Assembly (NCBI GenBank): GCA_004294225.1
Contig: REBA01000012.1
Location: forward strand, 1 to 64,000
From: Cytophagales bacterium
Lineage (GTDB): Bacteria; Bacteroidota; Bacteroidia; Cytophagales; Cytophagaceae
Length of the DNA stretch: 64,000 nucleotides
Direction: 5' to 3'
Shown: positions 25,582 to 35,150 of the stretch, in pieces
How positions within the stretch are numbered: the first letter of the stretch is position 1
Layout of the letters: each line of letters starts with the position of its first letter
Program-made: the position numbers and the translations under genes
The notes under the pieces: model-generated
What the model was told of the DNA's origin: nothing
Database searches by the model: none
What the model saw: the letters and a program-made list of their open reading frames with translations, nothing else

Positions 25582-26127
25582 TTATATCCATTTTATAACA
25601 TATTCATCAAATTCATCAGCAAGAGACACACTTTTTCTTAAAGAAACTTCAACGGCATTTTTGCCTGTTTTTTTGACTAATCCTTTTAATAATCCGAATT
25701 GTAGAATGCTATTGAATGTTTGCGTTCTTTTTAGAATTATTTCATTGTTGCTTTCTTTTAATAATTCCCAGCCTCTGCCTTTAGGGTCTTGAATCATATT
25801 GGAAGCTACAACTATAAGACCTTTGATAATTTCTACTGGGCTAGGAGAGTTGCTCACCATTTTTTGACTTACTAGGGCATTGTAAACAGATTCTCCAATT
25901 TTTTCTCCAATTTTTTTTAGATTGGCCTCTCCCAAATTTTCTTCTACCATTTCACACATATCATTGTATACTTGTATTGGAATTTTGTTGAAAGGTTCAG
26001 ATATGTCATGCCCTTCGGAAATACCCAAGAGTTCTTCGTAGCTTTCAGAATCTGCTTCTTTGTATAAGCTTAGGATATCGTTCAGAAATAATGCGTACAA
26101 GGTAACGTTTTCAGTAGAGTTGTCCAT
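25582..26127 (-). CDS. Unrecognised 181-aa cytoplasmic protein, last gene of the sensing cluster
   Basis: No family is recognised with confidence. The protein lacks a signal peptide and membrane helix. It is mostly helical with the pattern VYNDMCEMVEENLG near residue 56 and a mixed alpha/beta C-terminus (NEIILKRTQTFNSILQFGLL). The layout vaguely recalls small heme- or ligand-binding regulatory folds such as H-NOX or V4R, but this is a guess from pattern only. It begins 18 bp after the HAMP-GAF receptor gene, which suggests it is the cytoplasmic output or ligand partner of that receptor. Confidence 0.6.
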   Translation of the reverse strand: MDNSTENVTLYALFLNDILSLYKEADSESYEELLGISEGHDISEPFNKIPIQVYNDMCEMVEENLGEANLKKIGEKIGESVYNALVSQKMVSNSPSPVEIIKGLIVVASNMIQDPKGRGWELLKESNNEIILKRTQTFNSILQFGLLKGLVKKTGKNAVEVSLRKSVSLADEFDEYVIKWI

Positions 26128-26145
26128 ATTTTATCTTTTATGATA

Positions 26146-27879
26146 TTAGTTTTTTTCGCTAAGCTCTTCTATTTGTTTGTTTTTTCTTTTTAATTTTAAT
26201 TGAAGTAATTCAACTTCTGCTTTTATTCTTTCAACTTCTTCTTTATGATTATAAGCCATTAAGGTCATGGTTTCTTCTTTTTTCTGAGCTTCGTCAAGAA
26301 GAGATTGTAATTGCTTTTCTTTTCTGGACATTTCTTCTTGAGTCGCACTTAGTTCTTCTATATTTTGCTTCATTTCTTCTTCTTGAGATCTTAATATTTC
26401 TGCTTGTTCTTGAGATTCCTTTAAAAGTAAATAGGTTTTTTCGTTGTTGATTATAGAAGCTATTCCAGAAGCTATATTTTCTGATATTTTCTCTAAAAAT
26501 TCTAGCTTGTATTTTTCAAGTATATCAAAACTTGCTACCTCAATAATTCCATGAACTATATCGTTGATTTTTAAAGGCACTATTAATATACAATTTGGAT
26601 TTCTACTACCAAGACCTGAGGTGATATTAATATATTCATCAGGGACATCTGTAAGGTAAATGGCTTGTTTCTCTATATAGCATTGCCCTACCAAGCCTTC
26701 TCCTGGAAGAATTTCTTTTTCTAAATACTTTTTTCTATCATAAGCATAACAAGCTTTTAATAGTAGCTTTTTCTCCTCGTTTTCAGATTCATTTAGAATG
26801 AATAAGCCCCCTTGGTTTGCTCCAATGTATTTAACAATAAATGAAATAATCTGTGGATATAAATTTTCTGATTTAAAATCACTTCTTAAAATATCAGCGA
26901 TTTGGGCTATTCCTATATTGCTCCAGTTTCTATTTTGTTCGTTTTGGGATGCAATCTTTAGGTTGTTTTTCATTTTAATGATTTCTTCACCCAATGTATC
27001 TTCATCGCTTAGAAGTTCGATATTTGATTCATAGTTCCCGTCCCCTATTTGTTCGGCAAATTCTGCTTTTGCTTTTAGACCTTTAACTAGCAAGGAAAGT
27101 GAATTGGTCATTGTTCCAATTTCGTCTTTGGAGGTAGCAATGTTTATTTCTACAAATCTTCCTTTAGCAAGGTAATCTAATTTTTGCTTAAGACTTTGAA
27201 TTGGCTTAAGAATAGTATTGATTGAGTAATAACTAAAAGTAATAGCAATCAAAAGGAAAAGTGAAAGTGTACCAATAAATACTATTGATATCCAATTGGT
27301 TAAACTATTTTTATTTTCTTTTTTCTCATCTAATAATTTTCTTTGTAAGAATTCTGTTGTAATAATCTGTTGATTAAAGTTTACAAAACTTGGTAGTATT
27401 CCAGTTTCTAGTGATTGAATAGCATCATCTACGATGATATCGTTACTATAAGAAGAGTCTGCTTGAAGTTTCTGAATGATATTTTTCTGTTCACTCACTA
27501 TTTTATTAAATATTATATTTAATTCATTTATAGATTTTGTTAGACTATCAGAATCAATATTTAAAGTTATTTCATTAAGTTTCTTCTGAAAGATTGGGTA
27601 TTCTTTCTCAACAAGGTTTACAAGTTGAGTTTTTTCTTTTTTATTGGGTTGATAAACCCAATTGTTTATCAGGCGGTTGCTTTCTATGCTAATACTAGAG
27701 TAATCTTTAAGAGCTAAACTCAATGGAAATATGACTTCGGTAATTTCTCGATCTATATTTTTGTTTTTATTGATGTTGTAAACACAAATAACTGTGGTAA
27801 TAATCCCTAAAAATATGATTATACCATACCCAGAGATGATTCTCGAAGAAATACTGTTTTGAAGATTTATTTTTATCAT
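26146..27879 (-). CDS. Transmembrane HAMP-GAF coiled-coil receptor without a kinase domain
   Basis: A 577-aa membrane receptor. Transmembrane helix 1 is at about 15-35. A periplasmic helical-bundle sensor of the chemoreceptor 4HB type spans about 36-195, and helix 2 is at about 196-218. HAMP follows at about 219-272, a helical linker reaches to about 325, GAF is at about 325-480, and a long coiled coil runs from about 481 to the end (ELSATQEEMSRKE). There is no histidine-kinase, PP2C, cyclase or methyl-accepting signalling tip, so the output must be by protein contact or by a partner. It lies between the PstS-like gene (14 bp away) and the 181-aa gene (18 bp away), which makes these the likely ligand-binding and output partners. 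Confidence 0.85.
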   Translation of the reverse strand: MIKINLQNSISSRIISGYGIIIFLGIITTVICVYNINKNKNIDREITEVIFPLSLALKDYSSISIESNRLINNWVYQPNKKEKTQLVNLVEKEYPIFQKKLNEITLNIDSDSLTKSINELNIIFNKIVSEQKNIIQKLQADSSYSNDIIVDDAIQSLETGILPSFVNFNQQIITTEFLQRKLLDEKKENKNSLTNWISIVFIGTLSLFLLIAITFSYYSINTILKPIQSLKQKLDYLAKGRFVEINIATSKDEIGTMTNSLSLLVKGLKAKAEFAEQIGDGNYESNIELLSDEDTLGEEIIKMKNNLKIASQNEQNRNWSNIGIAQIADILRSDFKSENLYPQIISFIVKYIGANQGGLFILNESENEEKKLLLKACYAYDRKKYLEKEILPGEGLVGQCYIEKQAIYLTDVPDEYINITSGLGSRNPNCILIVPLKINDIVHGIIEVASFDILEKYKLEFLEKISENIASGIASIINNEKTYLLLKESQEQAEILRSQEEEMKQNIEELSATQEEMSRKEKQLQSLLDEAQKKEETMTLMAYNHKEEVERIKAEVELLQLKLKRKNKQIEELSEKN

Positions 27880-27893
27880 TTTTAGAAAAATGT

Positions 27894-28349
27894 TTATTCA
27901 ATTTGGCAGATTACTTTTACTTTGTTTTTATAATCCCCACTGAGTGAACTAGTGTTTACATATCCAACGGCACCTACTTCCTCTGATACAAAGTCAATGA
28001 TGGCTATATCATTAGCAAATTTATCTTGTGGTTTTTCTGCATTTTCATATTGTTTTTGAGTGAAGTATGCTTCAACATCTGTACCTGTCATATTTAGTAC
28101 TTTTTTATAAAATGCAGCTTGTTCAGGGGAGTTGCTTTTTCGATCTGCAGGCTTTATGTTTTTATTAATTTCAGGCCATCTTTTCTTGATTTTTCTAAGC
28201 CAGTATAATTTCACTTCGCCAGTAGTTAAAGTCGAAATGGGGTTTTCTTTATTTACAATTATTGAAATACTTGCTTCTGAGGCATCGGGTGTTTTAAAGC
28301 TAAGCGAAAAGCCGAGGGCTATAATTAGAAGATATATTATTTTTTTCAT
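27894..28349 (-). CDS. Small PstS-like periplasmic substrate-binding-fold protein
   Basis: A 151-aa exported protein (signal MKKIIYLLIIALGFSLSF). The fold resembles one lobe of phosphate-type periplasmic binding proteins: IVNKENPISTLTTGEVKLYWL near the N-terminus and EEVGAVGYVN near the C-terminus, as in short PstS-like proteins. It is about half the size of a transport PstS, and no ABC permease or ATPase lies nearby. A sensory, ligand-presenting role for the adjacent receptor is therefore more likely than transport. It lies 8 bp after the porin gene and 14 bp before the receptor gene. Confidence 0.75.
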   Translation of the reverse strand: MKKIIYLLIIALGFSLSFKTPDASEASISIIVNKENPISTLTTGEVKLYWLRKIKKRWPEINKNIKPADRKSNSPEQAAFYKKVLNMTGTDVEAYFTQKQYENAEKPQDKFANDIAIIDFVSEEVGAVGYVNTSSLSGDYKNKVKVICQIE

Positions 28350-28357
28350 AATATTAT

Positions 28358-29446
28358 TTAGAATACAAAGGCTACTTGTGTTTTTACTCCAAAACTAAAT
28401 CCATAATTGTCTTGATTTAATGTTTCTCCTTCAAATTTGACAACTACATTGTTACTGTATTTGTATCTTAAACCCAAGCTAGATTTGAGCGAGTTTACAT
28501 AGTTTTGCCCAGTATAAACATTGATATCTTGGAAGTAGGGGTCGCTATAGTTGAATTTTAAATATTCAGAGTAGAGATAGGGAACAACTTTGTCTGTTGC
28601 TTTGTAGCCCATATAGATAAAGCTTCCAAAGAAATTTTTGGTACCTATCGATTGATATTGATTAGCGTTGTGGAATATTTCGCTGATTAATTCAAATTTT
28701 TTCTCTTCGTTTAGGAAACTGATGCTACCCGACAATAAATATGTATTGATGTTTTCATTAAATATTTGATCAAATTGGTTTGGTAGACCTTTTTGAATCA
28801 TTTGGTACATAGCTGATGTAGATATTCTCAAACCATCTGTGGGCTCAATCCCTAATTGAGCAGAAATTCCAGGGGTTTCACCTAATTGGTAAGGTACACC
28901 CAGATATCCTCCATTTTTACCTATTCCATTGAATATAAATATTTTATAATAAATTCTTAGCTTCGAAATATTGTTTCCTTCTATTTGTAAACCTACATCT
29001 CTAGTATTGATAAAACCTCCATCATGAGTGGGTTGTAACATAAATGGTCTAGTAATAGTAGGTTGTAGGATAAGTCCGAAATTATAGTTTAAATTCCAGT
29101 GCCCTATTGGGGTGTACATTTTCCCAAAACGAAAAGAAAGATAATCGGAATGATCGTATTTGATATAGAATCTTTCTATTTCTGCTTCAGCTCCTGTTTT
29201 TGCCATATAGTGTGCGTGAAACTCACCGCTAACACTGAACTTTTCATTCAACTGTGAGGTAACAAATAATACCAAAGGTCCAGAGCGAAAGTATGGAGCA
29301 CCCGTATTTAATTTGGGGTGGTAAAAGTATTCAAAGCCTGGTTGACCGAAGAATTTTATTTTAGTTTCTTGTCCTAATAAGCTTATTGAGGAGGTTGCTA
29401 CTAGAAAAATAATTTTAATAACAGTGGGTGTAAGGGATAGTTTCAT
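28358..29446 (-). CDS. Outer-membrane porin-like beta-barrel protein
   Basis: A 362-aa protein with a signal peptide (about residues 1-25) and repeated amphipathic strands through to a C-terminal VKTQVAFVF that ends in phenylalanine, as outer-membrane barrels do. Segments such as FRFGKMYTPIGHWNLNYNFG and SGPLVLFVTSQLNEKFSVSGEFHA resemble phosphate-selective or general trimeric porins. It heads a minus-strand cluster with the PstS-like protein and the receptor, so it probably brings a small anion or other ligand to them. The substrate is not readable. Confidence 0.78.
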   Translation of the reverse strand: MKLSLTPTVIKIIFLVATSSISLLGQETKIKFFGQPGFEYFYHPKLNTGAPYFRSGPLVLFVTSQLNEKFSVSGEFHAHYMAKTGAEAEIERFYIKYDHSDYLSFRFGKMYTPIGHWNLNYNFGLILQPTITRPFMLQPTHDGGFINTRDVGLQIEGNNISKLRIYYKIFIFNGIGKNGGYLGVPYQLGETPGISAQLGIEPTDGLRISTSAMYQMIQKGLPNQFDQIFNENINTYLLSGSISFLNEEKKFELISEIFHNANQYQSIGTKNFFGSFIYMGYKATDKVVPYLYSEYLKFNYSDPYFQDINVYTGQNYVNSLKSSLGLRYKYSNNVVVKFEGETLNQDNYGFSFGVKTQVAFVF

Positions 29447-29810
29447 GAAATAATGGTATAATTTACTGTTGATGATACAGGAGTGTTCGTTTGTCTTAAA
29501 CTGGCATTTTTATATGATGAATTATACTCTGTTTTAGATTTAAAGGTTTCAAGAAGTATTTTATTTGTAGCTATTTAATATTAAAAAATATGCTTTATTT
29601 AACCCAAATTCCGAATTTAACAAACTAAAAAACAAGTTTTAGGAACCTTTGTGAGGCTCATCATTGTTTGACTTTGGAATTTTTTTAGCTTAAGTTTTTC
29701 TAAAATTACGCATTAGAAAATTTTAATTGAAAATAATTCAATATCAATAATTATTGGCTGATTTTATTTATATATAGAGAATCTTGGTTTGATTTTCTGG
29801 AGAGGTAAAC
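29447..29810. other. Intergenic region between the porin and DUF2911 genes
   Basis: This AT-rich stretch holds no credible coding frame. It must contain the promoter for the porin-led cluster, but I found no full TAnnTTTG match with a correctly spaced partner on the minus strand. A weak inverted repeat (TTTTCTAA at 29696-29703 with TTAGAAAA at 29713-29720) is present. Lack of the housekeeping promoter form may mean an alternative sigma factor. Confidence 0.4.
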
Positions 29811-29851
29811 AAAAAAACACCTATTTATGAAGTATAAATAGGTGTTTTTTT
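29811..29851. terminator. Bidirectional terminator downstream of DUF2911
   Basis: 17-bp arms 29811-29827 and 29835-29851 are exact reverse complements, with A7 and T7 tracts inside the stem and a 7-nt loop. Confidence 0.85.
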
Positions 29852-32531: not shown

Positions 32532-35150
32532 CTAGTTGTTAGATTCCTTGTTAATTATTTTAAAGCCAATTGCCTGTCCTTTAATTGCTGAGGCAGTGTT
32601 CTCGTTATTTAACGATTTTAAATCAACTAGCTCCAAAGATTTTAGTGCTTCGCTAGTGCGAGCTTCTTGTTTTAATGAAGCCATTCGGAGATGTTGGTTT
32701 TTAACTGCTTCTTTGACAATTTTTCTTGCTTCTCGAGCATTTCCAAAGAAGTTGTCTTTAGATTGGTATTTGTGTTCGAAAAGTTGTTTTAAATTTTCAG
32801 CTGCTTCTTTGGTTAGCTCTAGTCCTTCTTCTTCTAGCATTTTTAGGGCTATCATGAATAAATCATCTTGGTTATAATCTTGAAAATTGAGTGTTTGGTC
32901 AAATCTTGATTTTAGACCAGGGTTTGATTCTAAAAATTGTTTCATATTATTGGTGTATCCAGCTACCACTACTACAAATTCGCCTCTTTTGTCTTCCATT
33001 TGTTTAAGCAGTGTTTCTATAGCTTCACGGCCAAAATCATTTTCTGTCCCAGAAGCTAGTGTATAGGCTTCGTCTATAAACAGTATGCCTCCTTCTGCAG
33101 ATTTTATGGCGGTGCTTGTTTTAATCGCTGTTTGCCCAATAAATCCAGCTACCAATGCTTGTCTATCTACTTCTACAAGATGCCCTCTCTCTAGCACACC
33201 TAAAGCTTTATATACTTTTGCAATTATTCTTGCCACGGTAGTTTTACCTGTTCCTGGATTACCTATAAATACTGAGTGTAAGGAGAATTTATTGAGTACT
33301 TCTTTTTTTGTTTCTCTATAAAATCTTACAAGTTTAATCATTTCAGTAACGTCATTCTTTACTTCTTCAAGACCTACTAGGGAATTGAGATCTTCAAGTG
33401 CTTCGTTGAGAAGTTGGTCGTCGATTTGAATATCAGGTAAAGATTTAGAGTTTTGCTTGAAAATTTGCTCTATATCTATTTTGTGGACAGTTTTTAATTC
33501 TTCTGAAGAATAAATTACGCCCTCTTTAGGGGTTTTCATTAATCTTAAACCCATATTTACCTTGGCTTCATCTACTATTGAGTTCACTAGTCGTGCATTT
33601 CCGAAAGATTTATCTCTATTTCTGTATGTTTCGGTTAGCTTGGTATAAAGAAATGCGTTTGCATCTTCTGTAAAGTATACAGATCTGGAACTTGCAACAT
33701 GTTCAGCAATTTTCATCAACTCTTGTGGAAGATAGTCTTCGAAATGATAGTAAAGATTGAATCTAGATTTTAGTCCTGGGTTGCTATTGAGAAAAAAGTT
33801 CATCTCTTTGGGGTATCCTGCTACAATGATTGCTATATCTCCAGGGCCGTCAGACATTTCTTTTAGTAGAACTTCTATTACTTCTTGACCAAAATCTTGG
33901 GCATTGTCTCCTTCTCTTAGAAGGGAGTATGCTTCGTCAATAAACAATATTCCTCCTCTAGCTTTTTCTATTACTTCTTTTACTTGGGGAGCAGTTTGAC
34001 CAATAAACTTTCCTACTAATTCTGCTCTGCCTACTTCAGTAACTTTGCCTTTGCTTAGTAAACCCATTTTTTTGTAGATCTGACCTAGCATTTTAGCAAT
34101 GGTAGTTTTTCCTGTGCCAGGATTGCCTAAGAATACAGAGTGCAGACTAATTTTTTGATCCTCTTCAAATCCTTGTTCTTTTCTAAGTTTTAGGAATTTG
34201 AGATAATGGATATAATCGTTGATTTTGTTTTTGATATCTGCTAAGCCTATCATAGTGTTGAGCTGACTCATTACCTCTTCCAACGATTCTTCTTTGGCAC
34301 TTTGAGGCTCTGCGTCTTCTAATTTAGAATCAGGAAGCAGTTGGAATTCTGAAATACCTTCTTCAAATTCATCACCTACTGCGAAAGGAATAACAGCAAT
34401 AAGCTGATCCATAAATACTATTTCTAGTGTGTATTTATCATGATACCAAGTACCTTTTATGTTAGAACCCCATCCAGAGGTAAGTGTTACGTATTGGTCT
34501 TTTGTTTCTAAATATTTAAGTTCGGAAGTATTCCCTTTTAATTGCCCAGTGTCGTTATAAAAATTAAAAAATATTTCTGCATACCATGGTTGGCCTTGAA
34601 TATTGATAAAATTACATTCTAGCCAAACATATCTAGTTTCATCGGCTTTGAATTTCTTTAAATAGTTGCGTTCTAATAAGGGTATTCCTTGGTCTGAACC
34701 TTCAAATAATCTGATAGATTCGAGTTGAAAATAAGGGTTTTCTGTAGGGCTAACTGGGCCGCCATTCTCTATGTGAAATTTTCGTATTCCTACAGATTCT
34801 CCATCTATAAAGGCCTCCCATTCATAATCAGACCTTAGCCAGTAGGCTCCTGGTTCTTTATTGCCCCAGCCTTCTCTAATGATTACAATATTCTGATCTT
34901 TTGATATCTCTAATTCTCTTTGAATACTACATAGTTCTTTTTTGTTAGTGCCTTTGATTGAGTATGCTTTTAATAAAATATTTGCCGTCCAGTCTTCTTC
35001 ATCAAAGAGTTTATTATAAAACGAAAGCTCTGCATACAAATAGGTTGTTTCTAAATTGTCAAATACCCTTCGATATTTTTTGGTGTTGCCTTCTAATGTT
35101 TCGGTAGAAGAGAAGGTTTTTAAATCTTTGAATTTGTATTTTATTTCCAA
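32532..35150 (-). CDS. Tandem AAA+ ATPase (CbxX/SpoVK/EccA-like) with duplicated N-terminal beta domain
   Basis: An 872-aa cytoplasmic protein. Residues of about 1-127 and 141-258 are two copies of one beta-sandwich-like unit, each with a GWGxxxxG turn (94-101 and 226-233) followed by a Y-x-W/L-E strand. A short linker leads to two CbxX/CfqX-type AAA+ modules. Module 1 has Walker A GNPGTGKTT at 342-350, Walker B ILFIDEAY at 401-408 and SRF at 462-464. Module 2 has Walker A at 630-638, Walker B to about 696 and SRF near 748. Both look active. Relatives remodel protein complexes (Rubisco activase CbbX, type VII secretion EccA). The N-terminal repeats probably recognise the client. No secretion or Rubisco genes are nearby. 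Confidence 0.88.
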   Translation of the reverse strand: MEIKYKFKDLKTFSSTETLEGNTKKYRRVFDNLETTYLYAELSFYNKLFDEEDWTANILLKAYSIKGTNKKELCSIQRELEISKDQNIVIIREGWGNKEPGAYWLRSDYEWEAFIDGESVGIRKFHIENGGPVSPTENPYFQLESIRLFEGSDQGIPLLERNYLKKFKADETRYVWLECNFINIQGQPWYAEIFFNFYNDTGQLKGNTSELKYLETKDQYVTLTSGWGSNIKGTWYHDKYTLEIVFMDQLIAVIPFAVGDEFEEGISEFQLLPDSKLEDAEPQSAKEESLEEVMSQLNTMIGLADIKNKINDYIHYLKFLKLRKEQGFEEDQKISLHSVFLGNPGTGKTTIAKMLGQIYKKMGLLSKGKVTEVGRAELVGKFIGQTAPQVKEVIEKARGGILFIDEAYSLLREGDNAQDFGQEVIEVLLKEMSDGPGDIAIIVAGYPKEMNFFLNSNPGLKSRFNLYYHFEDYLPQELMKIAEHVASSRSVYFTEDANAFLYTKLTETYRNRDKSFGNARLVNSIVDEAKVNMGLRLMKTPKEGVIYSSEELKTVHKIDIEQIFKQNSKSLPDIQIDDQLLNEALEDLNSLVGLEEVKNDVTEMIKLVRFYRETKKEVLNKFSLHSVFIGNPGTGKTTVARIIAKVYKALGVLERGHLVEVDRQALVAGFIGQTAIKTSTAIKSAEGGILFIDEAYTLASGTENDFGREAIETLLKQMEDKRGEFVVVVAGYTNNMKQFLESNPGLKSRFDQTLNFQDYNQDDLFMIALKMLEEEGLELTKEAAENLKQLFEHKYQSKDNFFGNAREARKIVKEAVKNQHLRMASLKQEARTSEALKSLELVDLKSLNNENTASAIKGQAIGFKIINKESNN

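What the first reader, a model, noticed from the sequence alone, without database searches (positions are those of the whole stretch)
25582..29446. Four-gene envelope sensing cluster: porin, mini PstS-like protein, kinase-less HAMP-GAF receptor, unknown cytoplasmic protein
Genes on one strand with 8-, 14- and 18-bp gaps encode an outer-membrane barrel, a half-size periplasmic binding-fold protein, a two-TM receptor (helical sensor, HAMP, GAF, coiled coil) with no kinase, phosphatase, cyclase or chemotaxis tip, and a 181-aa soluble protein of unknown family. This spans outer membrane, periplasm, inner membrane and cytoplasm with no known output domain. The receptor coil plus the 181-aa protein may form a new type of signal output. 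The porin's upstream DNA lacks a housekeeping promoter match. This is my best candidate for an undescribed system.
Basis: partly seen in the sequence, partly recalled or inferred. Interest (0 to 1): 0.7.

Follow-up and report, generated by a model that had tools for sequence, protein, structure and literature searches.

The report
Modular envelope sensor plus heme-less H-NOX-like protein
Four neighbouring genes encode a sensor that spans the cell envelope; three of them are a recurring module found in other bacteria with interchangeable output parts, while the fourth, a protein predicted to fold like a nitric-oxide sensor but lacking its heme-binding residues, was found beside them only here.

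Summary
In detail: four minus-strand genes with 8-, 14- and 18-bp gaps encode a porin, a one-lobe PstS-like protein, a HAMP-GAF-coil receptor without an output domain, and a 181-aa soluble protein that matches no family above cut-off. Porin + mini-PstS (+ receptor) is a recurrent module: in all 16 mini-PstS loci opened in the order a porin lies directly upstream, and the next signalling gene varies (kinase-less HAMP-GAF receptor or HAMP histidine kinase; an MCP in Pseudoalteromonas). CheY-like genes follow the kinase-less receptor in three loci. The 181-aa protein is not a conserved partner: its family (17 of 291 order genomes) lies at unrelated loci, and only here beside the module. Its predicted structure matches the H-NOX fold over its whole length (Z 12.8), but the proximal heme histidine and YxSxR motif are absent: a heme-less H-NOX-fold family with a conserved RTQTFN motif, found only in this order. 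The receptor belongs to a large order-wide family; sister proteins carry PAS or SpoIIE phosphatase domains, one in this genome. I read this as a new variant of known sensory modules, with output in trans, not a demonstrated new output type.

The parts
28358..29446 (-). outer-membrane porin-like beta-barrel, first gene of the unit
   Evidence: BBP2 3.7e-5, Porin_O_P 1.2e-3, both just below cut-off; porin-like genes directly upstream of mini-PstS in 16 of 16 loci opened
27894..28349 (-). secreted one-lobe PstS-like protein (mini-PstS)
   Evidence: TIGR02136 5.5e-9 over profile 120-232/295; profile hits solved PstS chains 4gd5/4q8r; N-terminal signal sequence visible; SGTR ligand loop not conserved
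26146..27879 (-). two-TM receptor: helical periplasmic domain, HAMP, GAF, C-terminal signalling helix/coil, no output domain
   Evidence: HAMP and GAF_2; a homologue shows 4HB_MCP_1 at 6.1e-4; relatives in 121 of 291 order genomes; helix motif QEEEMKQNIEELSATQEEM shared with relatives
25582..26127 (-). 181-aa soluble H-NOX-fold protein without heme ligand
   Evidence: AF2 model pLDDT 77, pTM 0.76; Foldseek best hit H-NOX 1.9e-6; VIA Z 12.8 over 167 residues; no conserved His, YxSxR replaced
29803..29850 (-). hairpin followed by T run between DUF2911 gene and porin: likely terminator of the preceding gene, so the porin probably starts its own transcript
   Evidence: read by eye from the sequence, AAACACCTATTTAT..ATAAATAGGTGTTTTTTT; not listed by the consensus scan

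Best explanation
This is a member of a recurrent envelope-sensing module: porin + one-lobe PstS-like periplasmic protein + exchangeable inner-membrane receptor, to which this genome has appended a heme-less H-NOX-fold protein. Proposed working: a solute enters through the porin, the mini-PstS (free or ligand-bound) contacts the helical periplasmic domain of the receptor, and the signal passes through HAMP and GAF to the C-terminal signalling helix. The receptor has no enzyme, so output must be in trans: most likely by a separate kinase/response regulator, or by pairing with a sister receptor that carries an output domain, such as the HAMP-GAF-PAS-PAS-SpoIIE phosphatase of this genome. The 181-aa protein is best read as an accessory cytoplasmic sensor or adaptor of the H-NOX superfamily, tuned to something other than heme-bound gas. 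SHOWN by computation: gene order, domains, recurrence of the module with different outputs, predicted H-NOX fold, lack of heme-ligand residues, scattering of the 181-aa family. INFERRED: operon transcription, PstS-receptor contact, trans output, any receptor/181-aa contact (about 35%).
For: Porin-like gene directly upstream of mini-PstS in 16/16 opened loci of the order, plus 2 Persicobacter and 2 Pseudoalteromonas replicons. Next signalling gene: kinase-less receptor homologue directly after PstS in L062-L067 and both Persicobacter; with a di-heme cytochrome c peroxidase in between in L068 and L070; HAMP + HATPase_c kinase in L073 and L074 (Pfam) and look-alikes L075-L077, with two response regulators, one fused to a nucleotide cyclase, after it in L074; MCP adjacent in Pseudoalteromonas. 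CheY-like gene after the receptor in L062-L064. Sister receptors fused to PAS (L116) and to SpoIIE next to SiaC (L117), and in this very genome HAMP-GAF-PAS-PAS-SpoIIE at C31 followed by a DUF6272 gene. This genome has 18 HATPase_c and 15 receiver-domain matches that could serve in trans. A181: H-NOX fold, C-terminal profile match to H-NOX of the same order (hhalign probability 86, single comparison).
Against: No direct evidence of contact between any two products. No response regulator or kinase gene lies in this operon. The mini-PstS lacks the SGTR ligand loop of PstS, so it may not bind phosphate or any solute. The 181-aa gene is apart from the module elsewhere, so its position here may be accidental. 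Trans output is argued from homologues only.
Confidence: 0.55

Rival explanations
1. The 181-aa protein is an independent H-NOX-fold gene that happens to lie downstream of the receptor (bystander or recent rearrangement) and takes no part in the pathway.
For: Family present in 17/291 order genomes, in no other genome beside porin, PstS or receptor; single copy in each; the other genomes of the window's taxonomic family, including the one same-genus genome, lack it.
Against: 18-bp gap on the same strand suggests co-transcription. All 17 genomes with A181 also have receptor-family members against 121/291 overall (hypergeometric 1.6e-7), though this is confounded by phylogeny and genome size.
Confidence: 0.33
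2. One reading: receptor coil and 181-aa protein form a dedicated new type of signal output.
For: Same strand, 18-bp gap; stand-alone H-NOX proteins are known to regulate signalling partners (PMC8738867), and an H-NOX gene of this order lies near an HNOBA-type kinase (L153); genome-level co-occurrence with receptors.
Against: Adjacency is seen only in this genome; most receptor-bearing genomes lack the 181-aa family (17 of 121 have it); the same receptor family is followed by other genes elsewhere.
Confidence: 0.1
3. The receptor is a methylation-regulated, MCP-like signalling receptor tuned by CheR/CheB and read by a separate kinase.
For: CheR and CheB lie beside receptor homologues in L071 (by sequence look) and L135 (Pfam); Glu pairs at 7-residue spacing and an EExxAT stretch in the conserved helix; CheR in 115/121 receptor-positive against 94/170 receptor-negative genomes.
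Against: No CheR found in this genome, about 90% complete. The same helix motif recurs several times in multi-PAS proteins such as L125, so it looks like a general linker helix.
Confidence: 0.08

Closest known systems
H-NOX proteins (HNOB, PF07700; heme NO/O2 sensors)
   Same: Predicted fold over the full length (Z 12.8, 167 residues), size about 181 aa, stand-alone cytoplasmic protein; C-terminal half aligns by profile
   Different: No HNOB match, no proximal His (Val/Ala at that place), YxSxR replaced by TxTxN within a conserved RTQTFN motif, no HNOBA kinase beside it
Heme-less H-NOX-like sequences ('group 5' around Paracoccus denitrificans H-NOX, PMC8738867)
   Same: Proximal His lost, signal unknown
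   Different: Group 5 was found by sequence similarity to H-NOX, mostly carries Pro at the His position and lacks conserved Cys; A181 does not match HNOB at all and has one invariant Cys (C58). Not compared directly here
PstS / phosphate-binding protein family TIGR02136
   Same: About 120 residues align to one lobe of PstS
   Different: Half size; SGTR ligand loop replaced; no ABC transporter genes in the unit; beside a porin in all loci opened
SiaABC(D) phosphatase switch (Pseudomonas SiaABC, PMC7647112)
   Same: Receptor HAMP region hits the SiaA model (2.4e-6); sister receptors in the order carry SpoIIE and sit near SiaC (L117) or, in this genome, a DUF6272 gene
   Different: The window receptor has no phosphatase domain and no SiaB/SiaC-like neighbour
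YfiR-YfiN type envelope sensing (DUF4154 + HAMP receptor; from general knowledge)
   Same: A receptor homologue lies beside a YfiR/DUF4154 gene in L135 (Pfam; look-alikes in L116, L127-L129): periplasmic protein plus HAMP receptor layout
   Different: Here the periplasmic partner is a mini-PstS, and there is no GGDEF output

Membership tests
H-NOX (HNOB) | H-NOX fold | tested here: met
   AF2 model from 2 sequences, pLDDT 77; Foldseek TM 0.65 to 2o09; VIA Z 12.8
H-NOX (HNOB) | Pfam HNOB sequence match | tested here: not met
   No HNOB hit at E<=1 for any of 17 members, and none in the own genome, while HNOB is found in 85/241 order genomes
H-NOX (HNOB) | proximal heme histidine | tested here: not met
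   No conserved His anywhere in 17 members; V/A residues at the aligned place (placed by hand count from the DP/YP anchor)
H-NOX (HNOB) | YxSxR heme-propionate motif | tested here: not met
   Profile alignment puts TQTFN (TxTxN) there in all members, one with Ser for the second Thr
H-NOX (HNOB) | partner kinase/cyclase gene adjacent | tested here: not met
   Beside a kinase-less receptor here; mostly unrelated genes elsewhere
DUF2378 / V4R / TRAPP (possibly the same superfold) | sequence-family match | tested here: inconclusive
   DUF2378 at 0.034 in one of 17 members; TRAPP Bet3 structures Z about 10; no usable DUF2378 set found in the order
PstS / PBP (TIGR02136, PBP_like_2) | sequence-profile match to PstS | tested here: met
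   5.5e-9, though far below the curated cut-off; family profile to 4gd5 at 4.1e-8
PstS / PBP (TIGR02136, PBP_like_2) | two lobes and SGTR ligand loop | tested here: not met
   151 aa, one lobe; SGTR not kept in the alignment to 4gd5
Porin (BBP2 / OprO-P) | above-cut-off Pfam match | tested here: not met
   23.6 bits against cut-off 26.2 for BBP2 and 18.6 against 20.9 for Porin_O_P: just below both, so porin-like rather than filed in either family
Histidine kinase | HisKA/HATPase_c domain in the receptor | tested here: not met
   No such Pfam hit in the window receptor; present in some positional equivalents
Methyl-accepting chemotaxis protein | MCP signalling domain | tested here: not met
   No MCPsignal hit in the receptor; CheR not found in this genome
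SiaA-type phosphatase | SpoIIE/PP2C domain | tested here: not met
   Absent in the window receptor; present in paralogue L167:1657-4353

The most novel reading that the evidence does not exclude
A181 founds a new heme-less branch of the H-NOX superfamily that serves as a shared cytoplasmic partner of the many enzyme-less HAMP-GAF receptors of this order, so that one single-copy adaptor reads several envelope receptors, including the porin/mini-PstS receptor here.
Probability: 0.12. Interest if true: 0.75.

Novelty: new variant of a known kind. Interest (0 to 1): 0.42.

Why it matters
It shows a sensory front end (porin plus half PstS) kept constant while the inner-membrane output is swapped between kinase, chemoreceptor and enzyme-less receptor, which gives a natural set of comparisons for finding the ligand and the output. 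It also adds a conserved family, not in Pfam or NCBIfam as searched, that is predicted to keep the H-NOX fold without heme, bearing on the open question of what heme-less H-NOX-like proteins sense. And it raises a testable question about how the many enzyme-less HAMP-GAF receptors of these bacteria signal.

Tried and rejected
(1) A181 as dedicated receptor partner: not supported by the neighbourhood survey. (2) A181 as true H-NOX: fold yes, heme ligands no. (3) A181 as DUF2378: only a 0.034 hit in one member; a family search gave one fragment. (4) Receptor methylation by CheR/CheB: interesting in relatives, but CheR not found in this genome and the helix motif looks general. (5) Anti-phage defence: no PADLOC hit. 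(6) Structure of mini-PstS from a single sequence: failed, pLDDT 37, not used. (7) Viral collection: no A181 relatives. (10) Literature: no paper on a porin + PstS-like + receptor unit turned up in the held library.
Full report
Observation. The porin is a weak BBP2/Porin_O_P match. The small secreted protein matches TIGR02136 (PstS) at 5.5e-9 over one lobe only; a profile of 13 relatives finds solved PstS chains at 4e-8, and the alignment shows that the SGTR ligand loop is not kept. The receptor has HAMP and GAF and nothing enzymatic. The 181-aa protein has no family match above cut-off. A hairpin with a T run after the preceding DUF2911 gene, read by eye, suggests that the porin starts its own transcript.

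The module. Searching 291 genomes of the order with the mini-PstS gave 17 genomes. I opened 16 loci. A porin-like gene lies directly upstream of the mini-PstS in all 16 (the porin of L071 and the split porin of L066 are counted by position and sequence look). The following gene varies: kinase-less receptor homologues (L062-L067), the same receptor after a di-heme cytochrome c peroxidase (L068, L070), HAMP plus histidine-kinase proteins (L073 and L074 by Pfam, L075-L077 by sequence look), or something else (L069, L072). In L071 the peroxidase follows the mini-PstS and the receptor is divergent, beside CheR- and CheB-like genes. Two Persicobacter replicons carry porin-PstS-receptor, and two Pseudoalteromonas replicons carry porin-PstS with an annotated MCP next to it on the other strand. 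So the porin/mini-PstS pair is the constant part and the inner-membrane output is exchangeable. CheY-like genes follow the receptor in L062-L064, and two response regulators, one fused to a nucleotide cyclase, follow the kinase in L074.

The receptor family. Receptor homologues at E<=1e-30 occur in 121 of 291 order genomes, often several each. Many end in a helix with the motif QEEE(M/L)RQNxEELxATQEE; longer relatives continue into PAS domains, with further copies of the helix motif in multi-PAS proteins, and others into SpoIIE phosphatase next to SiaC. Several lie beside YfiR/DUF4154-like genes (one confirmed by Pfam: L135). In this genome five loci match the GAF/coil part: the window receptor, C15, C25, a C5 copy broken by two stop codons, and C31, a HAMP-GAF-PAS-PAS-SpoIIE protein followed by a DUF6272 gene; a further GAF fragment lies just upstream of the last. 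The window receptor is thus an ordinary member of a large family of enzyme-less receptors whose output is not known.

The 181-aa protein. Its family was found in 17 of 291 order genomes, the others at 42-54% identity to the window protein, in one further record, and in no genome outside the order in a 296-genome phylum sample. In none of the other genomes is it beside porin, PstS or receptor; two of those loci are cut by a contig end a few hundred bases upstream, and one has a receptor homologue about 5.5 kb away. All 17 genomes also hold receptor-family genes (chance 1.6e-7 without correcting for phylogeny or genome size), which keeps a looser functional link possible. The AF2 model (two sequences, pLDDT 77, pTM 0.76) matches H-NOX structures over the whole length: Foldseek 1.9e-6, VIA Z 12.8 at rmsd 3.4 over 167 residues, with TRAPP Bet3 structures next at about 10.5 over 130 residues. 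The profile of the family aligns with order-level H-NOX proteins over the C-terminal 61 columns (hhalign probability 86, single comparison). The heme features are missing: no conserved His in 17 members, and the YxSxR place reads TxTxN inside a conserved R-T-Q-T-F-N motif. Invariant C58, D114, R118-G-W and the C-terminal D..Y...W remain unexplained. Heme-less H-NOX-like sequences have been noted before (PMC8738867, 'group 5'); whether A181 is related to that group was not tested.

Mechanism. I propose solute entry through the porin, contact of the mini-PstS with the receptor's periplasmic helices, HAMP-GAF-helix transmission, and output in trans through a kinase/response regulator or a sister receptor. 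This rests on homologous layouts, not on direct evidence. The 181-aa protein is a plausible accessory sensor (about 35%) or a bystander (about a third).

Verdict. Real and mildly surprising: a new variant of known sensory modules plus a heme-less H-NOX-fold family that the searched libraries do not hold. The claim of a new output type made of receptor coil and 181-aa protein is not supported by neighbourhood evidence.

Noticed in passing
G000:C5:87996-88799 (L040 6015-7981, L168): A paralogue of the window receptor in the same genome is interrupted by one TAG and one TAA and splits into at least two open frames: pseudogene or assembly error.
   Followed up: partly
L068 8022-9062, L071 8321-9349 (and look-alike L070 904-2049): A di-heme cytochrome c peroxidase (CCP_MauG) gene sits between or next to mini-PstS and receptor in three loci, hinting at a redox signal for this module.
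   Followed up: partly
L135 821-4836 and L071 3030-6119: CheR and CheB genes lie beside enzyme-less HAMP-GAF receptors whose helix carries Glu pairs at 7-residue spacing; possible methylated receptors without an MCP domain.
   Followed up: partly
G000:C31 (L167 1079-4353): HAMP-GAF-PAS-PAS-SpoIIE protein followed by a DUF6272 gene: a possible SiaA/SiaB-like phosphatase switch in this genome.
   Followed up: partly
window 32532-35150 (-): 872-aa protein that appears to hold two CbxX/CfqX-like AAA ATPase modules, seen only in the ORF list.
   Followed up: no
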